This document shows positions 33,781-36,671 of a DNA stretch of 36,671 bases, piece by piece. The position numbers and the translations under genes were made by a program. This DNA comes from Candidatus Gastranaerophilales bacterium (GTDB lineage: Bacteria > Cyanobacteriota > Vampirovibrionia > Gastranaerophilales > Gastranaerophilaceae). The notes under the pieces were generated by a model that had not been told where the DNA came from, searched no databases, and saw nothing but the letters and a program-made list of their open reading frames with translations. The DNA is taken from assembly GCA_947631645.1 (NCBI GenBank), contig CANRMD010000017.1, positions 1 through 36,671 on the forward strand, written 5' to 3'. Position 1 is the stretch's first letter; each line of letters starts with the position of its first letter.

Positions 33781-33791
33781 TTTTAGTATGG

Positions 33792-33810
33792 GCACTCCGA
33801 AAGGGAGTGC
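33792..33810 (+). promoter_or_regulatory. Hairpin between rplX and rplE
   Basis: GCACTCC and GGAGTGC form a perfect 7-bp stem with a GAAAG loop, 11 bp after the L24 stop. There is no U run, so it is more likely a protein-binding, processing or mRNA-stabilising hairpin than a terminator. In E. coli the S8 feedback site lies at this same junction, but the sequence here does not resemble it. Confidence 0.5.
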
Positions 33811-33831
33811 ATTCTACGAAAGGATAAGGAA

Positions 33832-34383
33832 ATGACAGTAGTAACAAGAAATCTTAAAGACAAATACAATGAAGAAGTTAAAAAAGTTCTTCAAGAAGAA
33901 TTTAAGTATGAAAATGTACACCAAATCCCGAAATTAAGCAAAATTGTTTTAAATATGGGTGTCGGTGAAGCATGTCATAACTCAAAACTCGCTGAAGCAA
34001 TAGTAAATCAATTAACAAAGATTGCAGGTCAAAAAGCATTATCAACAAAAGCAAAAAAATCAATAGCAGCATTTAAGTTAAGAGAAGGGATGCCTGTTGG
34101 TGCTATGGTAACGCTTAGAGGCGAAAGAATGTATGATTTCTTACAAAAACTTATATGTGTAGTTCTTCCTAGAATTCGTGACTTTAGAGGCGTAAGCTCA
34201 AAAAGTTTCGACGGCAGAGGCAACTATACTTTAGGTTTAAAAGAACAATCATTGTTCCCCGAAATTTCATACGATGAATTGGATGCAGTTCATGGTATGA
34301 ACGTTTCAATAATAACGACAGCTAATACGGATGAAGAAGCAAGAGCTTTATTAAGAGCACTTGGAATGCCATTCAAGAAATAA
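33832..34383 (+). CDS. rplE: 50S ribosomal protein L5
   Basis: 183 residues. [37 protein letters not shown] and [15 protein letters not shown] mark L5, which binds 5S rRNA in the central protuberance. Follows the rplX hairpin; AAAGGATAAGG site. Confidence 0.98.
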
Positions 34384-34397
34384 AAAGGAGTAATCAC

Positions 34398-34604
34398 GTG
34401 GCTAAAAAATCAATGATAGATAAAGAGCTGAAAAGAGAAGCATTAGCAGCAAAAGGAAAATATCCGAGAGTAAGACTTCATAACAGATGTTCAATCTGCG
34501 GACGTCCGCACGGGTTCCACAGAGACTTCGGTATTTGCAGAATATGCTTAAGAAAAATGGCTCATCAAGGTTTATTGCCCGGTGTAGTTAAAGCAAGTTG
34601 GTAG
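34398..34604 (+). CDS. rpsZ: 30S ribosomal protein S14, zinc-binding type
   Basis: 68 residues. Four Cys (CSIC and CRIC) form the zinc site of type Z S14; [21 protein letters not shown] and the end [11 protein letters not shown] are conserved. GTG start with AAAAGGAG upstream. The stop is followed directly by the first repeat-unit hairpin, leaving a 227-bp spacer before rpsH where other genomes have a few bases. Confidence 0.97.
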
Positions 34605-34698
34605 CCCGCAGAGCGGGTTCCTATTTGGGCTTAAATATAATTAGTTAGTCCAACTAAAAGGGTGCCGCTGCACCACCGAGATGTAACAAAATCCAAGC
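34605..34698 (+). repeat. 94-nt double-hairpin unit A1 between rpsZ and rpsH
   Basis: Begins with hairpin 1 (CCCGC-AGA-GCGGG, 34605-34617), an AT linker GGGCTTAAATATAAT from 34627, hairpin 2 (GGTGC-CGCT-GCACC, 34661-34674), then ACCGAGA and CAAAATCCAAG. The next unit starts exactly 94 bases on. Strongly similar to unit B1 in the rplF-rplR gap. Confidence 0.8.
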
Positions 34699-34792
34699 CC
34701 CGCAGAGCGGGTTTCAAGTAGGACTCAAGTATAAGTAAGTTAAACCCAATATAAGGCCGCCACTGCGGCAAAGCTTTTCTATACTGCCGAAT
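34699..34792 (+). repeat. 94-nt double-hairpin unit A2
   Basis: Hairpin 1 is repeated exactly (34699-34711). The linker (GGACTCAAGTATAAG from 34721) is diverged. Hairpin 2 is GCCGC-CACT-GCGGC (34756-34769): same position, stem length and loop size as in A1 but different bases that still pair. The tail after hairpin 2 is not conserved. Confidence 0.7.
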
Positions 34793-34831
34793 AAATTTCA
34801 GTAAGTAGTAAAAAGTAAAGGAAAATAAAAA

Positions 34832-35233
34832 ATGAACACAGATCCGATAGCAGATATGCTCACAAGAATAAGAAACGCTAACATGGTTTCTTTAAATGAA
34901 GTAGATATGCCAAGTTCAAAATTAAAAATAGAATTGGCAAAATTATTAAAGTCAGAAGGTTATGTTGAAGACTATCAAATAGTTGATAAAGAAAACTCAA
35001 ACTTCAAAACTTTAAAAATCACATTAAAATACGATGAAAAATCAAAACCCGTAATTTCAAATCTTCAAAGAGTTTCAAGACCGGGTTTAAGAAATTACTG
35101 CAAAGCAAAAGATATACCTCAAGTGTTAGGCGGAATGGGTATAGCAATCATATCAACAAGTAAAGGTTTGTTAACCGACAGAAAAGCAAAAAAAGAGAAT
35201 GTCGGCGGCGAAATTCTTTGCTACGTATGGTAA
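34832..35233 (+). CDS. rpsH: 30S ribosomal protein S8
   Basis: 133 residues. TDPIADMLTRIRNANMV, RPGLRNYCKAKDIPQVLGG and a terminal GGEILCYVW identify it. S8 is the spc-operon autoregulator in E. coli. Here the gene is flanked upstream by two tandem repeat units. AAAGGAAAATAAAA gives a modest ribosome site. Confidence 0.98.
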   Translation: MNTDPIADMLTRIRNANMVSLNEVDMPSSKLKIELAKLLKSEGYVEDYQIVDKENSNFKTLKITLKYDEKSKPVISNLQRVSRPGLRNYCKAKDIPQVLGGMGIAIISTSKGLLTDRKAKKENVGGEILCYVW

Positions 35234-35269
35234 TAAGGTAAGTAAATAATTTAATTGGAGATAAAGAAA

Positions 35270-35809
35270 ATGTCACGTATAGGAAAATTACCGATAGCAA
35301 TACCCGATGGGGTTGAGGTAAAAATAGAAGGACAAGTTGTTAGTGCAAAAGGACCTTTAGGCACTGAAACAGTTGAAATTCGTCCTGAAATAAAAGTTGA
35401 GAAACAAGAAAATACAATTGTTTTAACAAGATTAAATGAAGACAGAAAATCACGTTCACTTCACGGTTTATCAAGAACTTTGGTAGCTAACGTAGTAAAC
35501 GGAGTTAAAACAGGTTTTACAAAGAAACTTGAAATAGTTGGTGTTGGTTATCGTGCTCAAATGCAAGGCAACACTTTAAACTTGGCGTTAGGTTATTCAC
35601 ATCCTATTGATATTCCTGCTCCTGAGGGAATAAAAATAGCTGTTGACCAAAACACAAAAATAACAATATCAGGTGCAAATAAACAAGCAGTAGGTGATAT
35701 TGCAGCATTAATAAGAAGCAAGAGACCGCCTGAAGTTTATAAAGGCAAAGGTATTAAGTACGAAGGCGAACACATCAGAAGAAAAGCCGGTAAGACAGGT
35801 AAGAAGTAA
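35270..35809 (+). CDS. rplF: 50S ribosomal protein L6
   Basis: 179 residues, two similar alpha/beta domains. [16 protein letters not shown] start, [16 protein letters not shown], and [16 protein letters not shown] are typical. ATG 35270 fits GGAG upstream; a TTG 15 bases earlier is discounted. Followed by a 305-bp spacer instead of directly by rplR. Confidence 0.98.
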
Positions 35810-35908
35810 CGAAATTCTGTACGGATAATATCCGCTTAGCGAAAGCCGAAGTGAGTACAACCAAAGGTGAGCGAACGACAGGCTTGAGCGAAAAGAATTT
35901 CAAGACAG

Positions 35909-36002
35909 CCGACAGAGTCGATTTCAAGTTGGGCTTAAATATAATAAGTAAATTCAACTTGAAAGGTGCCGCTGCACCACCGAGAGAAAGCAAAATCCAA
36001 GA
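35909..36002 (+). repeat. 94-nt double-hairpin unit B1 between rplF and rplR
   Basis: Hairpin 1 is CGAC-AGA-GTCG (35910-35920): same loop as A1/A2 but a different, still paired stem. Linker GGGCTTAAATATAATAAG from 35931 is enclosed by a 10-bp inverted repeat (TTTCAAGTTG 35922-35931 with 35955-35964). Hairpin 2 (35965-35978) is identical to A1, as is the following ACCGAGA / CAAAATCCAAG. Confidence 0.75.
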
Positions 36003-36060
36003 CCCGCAGAGCGGGCTCATATATAGGCTTAAATATAAATAAGTATAACTAAATATAAAA
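36003..36060 (+). repeat. Partial unit B2
   Basis: Hairpin 1 CCCGC-AGA-GCGGG (36003-36015) and linker AGGCTTAAATATAAATAAG (from 36025) repeat exactly 94 bases after B1. Hairpin 2 is absent, so the unit is truncated or decayed. Confidence 0.7.
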
Positions 36061-36070
36061 TTGCCAAAAT

Positions 36071-36096
36071 GAACCCTTACACAGGTAAGAAGGTTC
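36071..36096 (+). promoter_or_regulatory. Hairpin just upstream of rplR
   Basis: GAACC-CTTAC, loop ACAG, GTAAG, AA bulge, GGTTC: ten base pairs ending 18 bases before the ATG. Could modulate L18 translation or be a processing site. Confidence 0.45.
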
Positions 36097-36114
36097 GGGT
36101 GAAAGGAAAGAAAA

Positions 36115-36483
36115 ATGATTAAACAAACAAACAAAAAAGAAGCAACACAAAAAAGACACAGAAGATTAAGAGCTAAACTTGCGGGAACAACAGAAGCTCC
36201 GAGATTAGCAGTATACAGAAGCACAAAACATATTTATGCTCAAATTATCGACGACGTAAAAGGTGTAACAATAGTATCCGCTTCATCATTAGATAAAGAC
36301 ATGAGAAAAGATTTAACTCATGGCGGAAACATTGAAAGTGCAAAAGCTGTAGGTGAAGCTATTGCAAAAAAAGCTTTAAAAGCAGGTGTTAAAGATGTAG
36401 TATTTGACCGCGGAGGGTTTTTATACCACGGACGTGTTGCGGCTTTAGCAGATGCAGCAAGAGAAGCAGGATTAAATTTCTAA
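36115..36483 (+). CDS. rplR: 50S ribosomal protein L18
   Basis: 122 residues. [44 protein letters not shown] and [21 protein letters not shown] are standard; binds 5S rRNA. Last gene of the operon here: a terminator follows and the next gene faces it, so the usual rpsE partner is missing. Confidence 0.98.
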
Positions 36484-36503
36484 TTCTTTTAGATTGTATT
36501 ATA

Positions 36504-36540
36504 AAAAGGGGAAAGGTTTTTATATCTTTCCCCTTTTATT
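36504..36540. terminator. Strong bidirectional terminator closing the ribosomal operon
   Basis: AAAAGGGGAAAG (36504-36515) pairs perfectly with CTTTCCCCTTTT (36526-36537), 10-base loop, with T runs on both strands. It lies 20 bp after rplR and 21 bp after the stop of the convergent gene. Confidence 0.9.
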
Positions 36541-36560
36541 ATTTGTAAAAATATTTCTGA

Positions 36561-36671
36561 TTACAGGTCAAAATTTGTTTTAAAAACGGTATTGTCTTTA
36601 ATTTCAAAAATTTCAACATTTTTTAAATATTCTTCCTTAAAATGCAAGGTATCGACGGAAGTAATAATTGT
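36561..36671 (-). CDS. 3' end of an unidentified convergent gene
   Basis: Open frame running in from the right edge: 36 residues then TAA, ending VFKTNFDL. The stop lies 21 bp from the shared terminator, as expected for a real convergent gene. Too short to assign a family; residues alternate charged and hydrophobic, suggesting beta structure. Confidence 0.6.
   Translation of the reverse strand, partial: TIITSVDTLHFKEEYLKNVEIFEIKDNTVFKTNFDL

What the first reader, a model, noticed from the sequence alone, without database searches (positions are those of the whole stretch)
34605..36060. Tandem 94-nt double-hairpin units inserted twice in the spc ribosomal operon
Two spacers, before rpsH and before rplR, carry pairs of units with an identical 94-base period (A1 to A2, and B1 to B2). 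Each unit has an AGA-loop hairpin, a linker near GGCTTAAATATAA and, in three of four, a 5-bp tetraloop hairpin 56-57 bases after the first. Stems differ between units yet still pair (CCCGC/GCGGG against CGAC/GTCG; GGTGC/GCACC against GCCGC/GCGGC), which argues for selection on RNA or single-stranded DNA structure. I know of no named repeat or ribosomal leader of this form. It could be a REP-like mobile element, a ribosomal-protein feedback site or an RNA processing signal.
Basis: partly seen in the sequence, partly recalled or inferred. Interest (0 to 1): 0.82.

Follow-up and report, generated by a model that had tools for sequence, protein, structure and literature searches.

The report
Repeats abutting ribosomal-protein feedback leaders
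The tandem hairpin units are copies of a scattered, non-coding repeat family found in gut Gastranaerophilales bacteria, and right beside them sits a different, strongly conserved RNA hairpin that copies the ribosomal site bound by protein S8 and probably lets S8 switch off its own gene.

Summary
The four units are real: 94-base periods, AGA hairpins, AT-rich linkers, a second hairpin in three of four. They are not a ribosomal feedback site. Each is a ~70-nt module (T) joined, in A1 and B1, to the 3' end of a second module (X, ~100-140 nt, variable but complementary arms). T and X are dispersed repeats: 10 T copies found in this genome, T in 21 of 41 genomes of the genus; an exact pattern over GTDB contigs hit only Candidatus Gastranaerophilales. 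Arrays differ between relatives and often begin exactly at a stop codon or after a T-run. They work like BOX-type mosaic repeats; REP features are not met. What looks regulatory lies between repeats and genes. Before rpsH, 34774-34815 carries the 16S helix-21 S8-binding core (AUACUG/UAAGU) with stems that covary across the family, once per genome in 33 of 40, each at rpsH. A 2024 review calls spc regulation outside E. coli-like species unknown. Covarying leaders also precede rplR and rplE; their ligands are unproven. Shown: repeats, distribution, covariation, core identity. Inferred: mobility, S8 binding, repression.

The parts
34603..34677 (+). T module A1: hairpin 1 (CCCGC-AGA-GCGGG), AT-rich linker stem, hairpin 3 (GGTGC-CGCT-GCACC); hairpin 1 begins right after the rpsN stop codon
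   Evidence: 83.5 bits; a model seed
34675..34697 (+). X-module 3' end (ACCGAGATGTAACAAAATCCAAG) that completes the 94-nt unit A1
34697..34772 (+). T module A2
   Evidence: 79 bits; a model seed
34774..34815 (+). rpsH leader: candidate S8-binding hairpin; core CTATACTG...TAAGTAG at 34779-34808; its AAG ends 26 nt before the rpsH ATG (34832)
35811..35909 (+). X module (arms GAAATTCT / AGAATTTC, tail CAAGACAGC) starting one base after the rplF stop codon TAA
35907..35981 (+). T module B1 (hairpin 1 variant CCGAC/GTCG)
   Evidence: 82.4 bits; a model seed
35979..36001 (+). X-module 3' end (ACCGAGAGAAAGCAAAATCCAAG) that completes the 94-nt unit B1
36001..36062 (+). T module B2, truncated: hairpin 3 absent (the CM match runs on to 36076)
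   Evidence: 70.5 bits; a model seed
36063..36100 (+). rplR leader: GCC/GGY, URRACC/GGUYYG, AA bulge, CUU/AAG hairpin; ends before the Shine-Dalgarno region of rplR (ATG 36115)
33786..33817 (+). rplE leader: GTA/TAC outer pairs, 7-bp covarying stem, 5-base loop; outside the reported coordinates

Best explanation
Two unrelated things share these spacers. (1) The 94-nt units are copies of a BOX-like mosaic of small, non-coding, presumably non-autonomous repeats (T and X) of this Gastranaerophilales genus. They often sit at gene ends, right after a stop codon or a terminator T-run, and differ in number as tandem arrays. They persist where they break neither the ORF nor the downstream leader; in the spc operon they would be co-transcribed, hairpin-rich spacer. 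(2) Between the repeats and rpsH lies a conserved hairpin that reproduces the S8-binding core of 16S helix 21 with the strands swapped, as in the E. coli spc mRNA. Excess free S8 would bind it and block initiation at rpsH, 26 nt downstream. Shown: dispersal, array variation, stem covariation, boundary pattern, S8-core identity, one S8 site per genome at rpsH. Inferred: transposition as the route of spread, co-transcription, S8 binding, repression.
For: Dispersal: blastn of the A spacer finds 6 places outside the window at E <= 0.0067; these and the four units make 10 T copies, and the model built from them finds no further one in the own genome. In the genus 21 of 41 genomes match at E <= 0.001. 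All 12 stretches hit by an exact pattern in the GTDB contig collection are titled Candidatus Gastranaerophilales. Relatives' orthologous spacers carry other numbers and mixtures of T and X, or none. T covariation: 14 of 19 pairs with double changes (shuffled mean 11.1; 16 of 500 reach 14), score 0.287 against 0.136 (0 of 500). Boundaries, sorted by eye: of 37 X copies, 13 start at a stop codon (12 identified, 1 presumed), 6 after a T-run, 15 follow another repeat, 3 elsewhere. S8 leader: motif in 29 of 30 genus loci (the miss is cut by a contig end) and 24 of 30 other loci of the order; other stretches of the same loci 0 of 723 and 2 of 780; shuffles 1 of 600 and 6 of 600. A narrower pattern occurs once in each of 33 of 40 genus genomes, each just before rpsH (positions). 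Nine of 12 pairs doubly changed, score 0.563 against 0.195. The core equals E. coli 16S A640-G645 and U594-U598 letter for letter, which PMC4176348 (passages) describes as the S8 core.
Against: No transposase partner was identified (only Y1 was searched), and no clean empty/occupied site with a target duplication; the one close pair (rplX-rplE, L036 against L037) also differs in its flanks. After rplT, obgE, infA and a CoA-activase-like gene the repeats do not abut the stop codon. Covariation inside palindromic DNA repeats can come from template switching, without RNA selection. For the window's S8 leader the nearest-neighbour minimum (-8.0) is another register than the S8 core (-2.0). The S8 screen required pairing (>=3 outer, >=2 inner), which raises the percentage paired. 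The genus's own 16S was not found (0 of 11 genomes), so the mimicry rests on E. coli 16S. The motif is absent from all 18 genomes of order families f2, f3, f4, f6 and f7 that were read.
Confidence: 0.78

Rival explanations
1. The T/X arrays are themselves functional cis elements of translation genes: co-transcribed hairpins that stabilise or process the mRNA or break translational coupling, so that each cistron depends on its own leader.
For: T sites are concentrated at ribosomal-protein and EF-G genes: in G025, 12 of 14 matches are listed and fall at 7 sites, 6 of them rplT, rplL, rpsM, fusA, rpsN-rpsH, rplF-rplR; in G034, 22 of 27 are listed, 11 sites, 6 of them such genes. Binomial P 5e-9 to 2e-6 and 3e-7 to 9e-5 for an assumed, not measured, background of 3-8%. 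In the 12 spc loci with T among the 19 given, all T at E <= 1e-5 lie on the coding strand. Stems covary.
Against: 20 of 41 genus genomes have no T at the threshold, and 8 of 27 rpsN-rpsH spacers are 89-128 nt without repeats. Copy number varies. Other sites are dgkA (T antisense), a serine-dehydratase gene, a CoA-activase-like gene. Four of the 10 model seeds come from spc, so some bias is possible.
Confidence: 0.2
2. REP/BIME elements mobilised by a RAYT (Y1 transposase).
For: Short palindromic hairpins in intergenic clusters; window A1 is preceded by GGTAG.
Against: PF01797 is absent from the own genome and from the other 7 T-bearing genomes among the 28 searched, while 5 genus genomes that have it lack T. 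About 10 copies, head-to-tail arrays, and varying bases before hairpin 1.
Confidence: 0.05
3. The 94-nt units are ribosomal-protein feedback sites.
For: They lie before rpsH and rplR.
Against: The same module lies after fusA, rplL, rplT and other genes and is absent before rpsH in many relatives, while the separate S8 leader is kept in all 29 genus loci not cut by a contig end.
Confidence: 0.03
4. The rpsH leader is a conserved structured element for some factor other than S8, or a promoter (TATACT) for rpsH.
For: TTTTCTATACTG contains a -10-like hexamer; binding was not tested; in the window the predicted minimum is another fold.
Against: Other genera keep the ACTG/TAAG core while the outer stem becomes GGA/TCC, CCA/TGG or GTT/AAC; pairs covary; the core equals the published S8 contact nucleotides.
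Confidence: 0.12

Closest known systems
BOX elements of Streptococcus (boxA-boxB(n)-boxC; PMC3049150, passages)
   Same: Small mosaic of outer and inner modules, inner module in variable tandem number, predicted stem-loops, clusters in which repeats insert into one another, frequent position at the extreme 3' end of genes (36 of 58 CDSs that overlap a BOX get their stop codon from it).
   Different: No BOX sequence was compared; different phylum; here the arms of X vary between copies yet stay complementary, and T mostly stands beside X tails rather than between two fixed ends; no partner transposase found.
REP/BIME with RAYT (PMC2817692, abstract and passages)
   Same: Intergenic palindromic repeats in clusters.
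   Different: No RAYT, low copy number, no conserved GTAG, head-to-tail order.
E. coli S8 site in spc mRNA at rplE (PMC4176348 and PMC10931766, passages)
   Same: mRNA hairpin with the S8 core of 16S helix 21, strands swapped (U+11 on the 5' side, A+80/A+81 on the 3' side in E. coli; ACU on the 5' side, AAG on the 3' side here).
   Different: Lies before rpsH itself, upstream of its start codon, not at rplE; outside Proteobacteria; several genera of the family carry two such motifs in tandem.
Ribosomal leaders of the 2020 survey 'Discovery of 20 novel ribosomal leader candidates' (PMC7247131, term search of the main text)
   Same: Structured RNAs upstream of ribosomal-protein genes.
   Different: rpsH, rplR and Melainabacteria have 0 occurrences in its main text (supplements not seen); no Rfam family reaches its gathering score in the stretches scanned.

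Membership tests
REP/BIME | Associated RAYT (Y1) transposase in the genome | tested here: not met
   PF01797 absent from G000 and the other 7 T-bearing genomes among 28 searched (the own assembly is 94% complete)
REP/BIME | GTAG directly before the hairpin | tested here: not met
   preceding bases vary (GACAGCG, CAAGC, GTCG, AGCA); GGTAG at A1, where the rpsN stop codon supplies it
REP/BIME | High copy number, alternating orientation | tested here: not met
   10 copies in the own genome, arrays head to tail
BOX-type mosaic repeat | Composite of distinct modules with a variable number of an inner module | tested here: met
   T and X in different numbers and orders at the same site in relatives; T inside X arms in L023, L037, L081
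BOX-type mosaic repeat | Sequence homology to boxA, boxB or boxC | not tested
   no BOX sequence was compared
MITE | Terminal inverted repeats | tested here: inconclusive
   X has complementary arms (they were the search criterion), but their sequence differs between copies; none seen for T
MITE | Target-site duplication on insertion | tested here: inconclusive
   no clean empty/occupied pair; AGCG recurs at the ends of many tandem X
MITE | Autonomous element with the same ends | not tested
   only Y1 transposase was searched
S8 autoregulatory mRNA site | S8 core nucleotides N641 A642 C643 U644 / A595 A596 G597 in an internal loop between two helices | tested here: met
   energy minimum of the window copy is another register
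S8 autoregulatory mRNA site | Located in the operon that encodes S8 | tested here: met
   33 matches, 32 just upstream of the rpsH, the 33rd (G039)
S8 autoregulatory mRNA site | Bound by S8 and represses translation | not testable with these tools
   needs binding and reporter assays

The most novel reading that the evidence does not exclude
In this family of Gastranaerophilales the spc operon is controlled cistron by cistron by separate leader RNAs: S8 at rpsH (in several genera a double S8 site), and L18 at rplR and, in this genus, L5 at rplE, both 5S-binding proteins. A new family of gene-end-seeking palindromic repeats, placed exactly at stop codons between these leaders and the upstream cistron, breaks translational coupling and so makes that control possible or stronger.
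Probability: 0.22. Interest if true: 0.82.

Novelty: new variant of a known kind. Interest (0 to 1): 0.62.

Why it matters
[quoted passage not shown] A 16S helix-21 mimic before rpsH in an order of the Cyanobacteriota/Melainabacteria group makes that question testable with one binding assay, and suggests that S8 feedback was either kept or reinvented at another cistron. The repeats matter as a BOX-like mosaic in an order known here from MAGs, often settled precisely at gene ends, many of them ribosomal; three of the six other copies in this genome lie near contig ends, and such repeats can be mistaken for regulatory leaders.

Tried and rejected
Rfam scan of window 34000-36671 and of 12 repeat-bearing loci: nothing over a gathering score; a sub-threshold L20_leader match covers the terminator after rplR, and sub-threshold L10_leader, Thr_leader and others are taken as chance. 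Viral contigs (exact pattern), phage and plasmid records (306-base query): nothing. Y1 transposase as partner: rejected. 5S mimicry for the rplR leader: the genus's 5S helix III, as I read it, also has a two-base 3' bulge, but UC instead of AA; inconclusive. The genus's own 16S: 0 of 11 genomes, so E. coli 16S was used. Protein tree of S8+L6 to ask whether T has one origin: poorly resolved; T presence is clustered (5 changes against 10.1 shuffled) but not one clade. One search covered a wrongly sliced stretch and is not used; the number of X copies in the own genome was therefore not measured. S8 motif further out: 0 of 1 in the class, 1 of 37 in the phylum, that one 343 nt from the gene and probably chance; reverse-strand control 1 of 60. 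Library searches on Gastranaerophilales repeats, S8, leaders in Melainabacteria, stop-codon repeats and L5/L18: no paper on these elements among the rows listed (15 of 179, 20 of 585, 10 of 15, 12 of 2,566, 12 of 16, 8 of 32).

Full report
WHAT IS THERE. The window is contig C17 of a 1.87-Mb, 77-contig genome. The genes around the spacers are L24, L5, S14, S8, L6 and L18 by Pfam. The reported units are real, at the stated places and with the stated 94-base periods. The A and B spacers align over 152 nt (76%; blastn 78%, E = 4.2e-27). I call the hairpin-linker-hairpin part T (about 70 nt). In many copies the linker is itself a stem, so T has up to three stems: hairpin 1, AAGTTGGRCT...AGTCCAACTT, hairpin 3. 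The remaining ~23 nt of the 94-nt unit is the 3' end of another repeat, X.

T IS A DISPERSED REPEAT. Blastn of the A spacer finds six places on other contigs at E <= 0.0067. A covariance model built from those six and the four window units finds these 10 and no other copy in the own genome (two more rows are reverse strands of the same palindromes). Three of the six lie within about 210 nt of a contig end. In the genus, 21 of 41 genomes match at E <= 0.001 (2 to 27 rows each, reverse-strand shadows included; G032 only weakly, best E 2.6e-5) and 20 do not; this search used stricter filters that lose weak matches. An exact pattern over the GTDB contig collection (one genome per species, contigs under 3 kb not held) hits 12 stretches, all titled Candidatus Gastranaerophilales, from 'Lapin' MAGs. 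No hit in viral contigs, phages or plasmids.

STEMS COVARY. On 102 distinct rows the three stems form standard pairs in 85.3% of cells (shuffled 75.9%); 14 of 19 pairs have a change on both sides (shuffled 11.1; 16 of 500 reach 14); score 0.287 against 0.136 shuffled and at most 0.095 for slid partners. By stem: 96%, 75% and 94% paired. Hairpin 1, third pair, is G-C in 43 and C-G in 42 rows. The 58 sources were chosen among the loci held, and the alignment was fitted to a model that contains hairpins 1 and 3, which leans towards them. In palindromic DNA, template switching can restore pairing without RNA selection.

X AND THE MOSAIC. X copies begin with (A)GCG plus an arm such as GGATTTTGC, GGTTTTTGC, GAAATTCC or GGATTTCC and end with the complement of that arm plus CAAGA (arm complementarity was the search criterion). 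T can sit inside X arms (L023, L037, L081). In the window X is 35811-35909 and X tails follow A1 and B1. At the same spacers of relatives one finds T, X, several of each, or neither: rpsN-rpsH could be read in 27 of 30 loci and runs from 89 to 474 nt; 8 of them are 89-128 nt without repeats. Boundaries (sorted by eye, since the script's own labels missorted some rows): of 42 rows I dropped 5 that are not X (L014, L047, L139, L151, L155); of the remaining 37, 15 follow another repeat, 13 start 0-1 nt after a stop codon (rpsN 5, rplF 2, rplX 2, fusA, rplL, rplR, and one presumed stop in L087), 6 start right after the T-run of a terminator-like stem, and 3 lie elsewhere. Many are orthologous sites, so these are about seven genes, not 13 events. 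Counter-examples: after rplT, a CoA-activase-like gene, obgE and infA the repeats do not abut the stop codon.

WHERE T SITS. In G025 the 12 listed matches (of 14) fall at 7 sites: rplT 3', rplL 3', infA-rpsM, fusA 3', rpsN-rpsH, rplF-rplR, and one between a CoA-activase-like and a spermidine-synthase-like gene. In G034 the 22 listed matches (of 27) fall at 11 sites, 6 at ribosomal-protein or EF-G genes. With an assumed background of 3-8% this is unlikely to be chance, but the background was not measured and 4 of 10 model seeds come from spc. In the 12 spc loci with T among the 19 that I gave, T is on the coding strand in all; at dgkA it is antisense.

THE PART THAT LOOKS REGULATORY. All 29 genus loci that are not cut by a contig end, with or without repeats, keep CTATACTG...TAAGTAG (CTTTTCTATACTGCCGAATAAATTTCAGTAAGTAG in the window) between the rpsN stop and rpsH. 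E. coli 16S has A640 U641 A642 C643 U644 G645 and U594 A595 A596 G597 U598 (read off rrsH). PMC4176348 (passages) gives (G597-C643)-U641, invariant A642 and A595-(A596-U644) as the S8 core, and A+80-(A+81-U+11) for the E. coli spc mRNA, i.e. strands swapped relative to 16S. The rpsH leader has AUACUG on the 5' side and UAAGU on the 3' side: the same letters, the same swap. A screen for N-ACTG...TAAG with at least 3 outer and 2 inner pairs finds it in 29 of 30 genus loci (the miss, L031, begins inside the motif) and 24 of 30 further loci of the order, against 0 of 723 and 2 of 780 other stretches of the same loci and 1 and 6 of 600 shuffles. Among those 30, family f1 has 23 of 24, and the exception L137 has CAAG (G-C for G-U); f5 1 of 1; f3 0 of 4; f7 0 of 1. 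In 60 more stretches (CAAG allowed): genus 3 of 3, f1 6 of 6, other order families 0 of 13, class 0 of 1, phylum 1 of 37 (343 nt from the gene), reverse-strand control 1 of 60. The narrower pattern CTATACTGN{10,24}TAAGTAG occurs exactly once in 33 of 40 genus genomes; 32 lie just upstream of the rpsH and the 33rd (G039) likewise. Of the 7 genomes without it, 6 have no S8 match and one (G003) is the contig-end case. The control, the pattern read backwards, has 0-1 matches per genome and strand. The outer three pairs change wholesale: CTA/TAG, GGA/TCC, AGA/TCT, CCA/TGG, CCG/CGG, GTT/AAC. Nine of 12 pairs have double changes (shuffled 6.9; 1 of 500); score 0.563 against 0.195; further pair types are less decisive (41 of 500); the rows were chosen for pairing of the outer three and first two inner pairs. 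Eleven of the 30 other loci, and 3 of the 6 f1 loci, carry two such motifs in tandem. Against: for the window sequence the nearest-neighbour minimum is another register (-8.0, against -2.0 for the core fold, which ignores base triples).

OTHER LEADERS. Before rplR: GCC/GGY, URRACC/GGUYYG, AA bulge, CUU/AAG, found in 27 of 30 genus loci and 11 of 30 other loci (by a sequence pattern, so conserved letters are partly a criterion). Two pairs have double changes, 8 cells against 2.0 shuffled, but the number of pairs and of pair types is not above shuffles (257 and 460 of 500). Before rplE, in the genus: 21 of 30 sources by a strict pattern, 0 of 30 other-genus loci by a looser one (some loci may not reach rplE); 5 of 10 pairs doubly changed (shuffled 2.6; 5 of 500), all cells paired, outer letters being a criterion. 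L18 and L5 are the obvious candidates because they bind 5S (PMC10931766), but 5S mimicry was not shown.

MECHANISM AND LITERATURE. Proposed: S8 in excess of 16S binds the rpsH leader and blocks initiation 26 nt downstream. The repeats fill the gap between the rpsN stop and this leader, and between the rplF stop and the rplR leader, without touching either. They work like BOX elements (PMC3049150, passages: composite modules, variable tandem boxB, 36 of 58 overlapping CDSs receiving their stop codon from BOX); membership by sequence was not tested. REP fails on three features (PMC2817692, abstract and passages). PMC10931766 (passages) states that spc regulation in B. [quoted passage not shown] PMC7247131 has no mention of rpsH or rplR in its main text. 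PMC2704228 (passages) mentions S8 in the E. coli setting. The rows listed by six searches of the held library show nothing on these elements; most subscription papers are not held.

Noticed in passing
window 33786-33817: Conserved hairpin before rplE (GTATGGGCACTCCGAAAGGGAGTGCATTCTAC); its 7-bp stem covaries across the genus, flanks conserved. Possible L5 leader.
   Followed up: partly
window 36063-36100: Conserved structured leader before rplR, seen also in some other genera of the family. Possible L18 leader.
   Followed up: partly
L129, L132, L136, L139, L142, L144, L145, L149, L155-L157, L223, L224, L230, upstream of rpsH: Two S8-core motifs in tandem before rpsH in other genera of the family; the second lies next to the Shine-Dalgarno sequence in several.
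   Followed up: partly
L139 and L144, between rplF and rplR: A different stretch shared by both (TTGCATGTGAAGGGTGAAAAA...GTAGCCCGTTAAAGCAAGTAATGAAAGG) precedes rplR instead of the leader seen in the window.
   Followed up: no
L020, L021, L024, L095, L109, L118: X repeats begin directly after the T-run of terminator-like stems; group IIC introns are also known to insert after terminators (recalled, not from a call).
   Followed up: partly
window 36504-36537: Terminator-like 12-bp inverted repeat after rplR: the operon seems to end here; rpsM lies on another contig (C2).
   Followed up: no
genomes G004, G009, G011, G012, G015: Genus members that carry Y1 transposase genes show no T copies.
   Followed up: no
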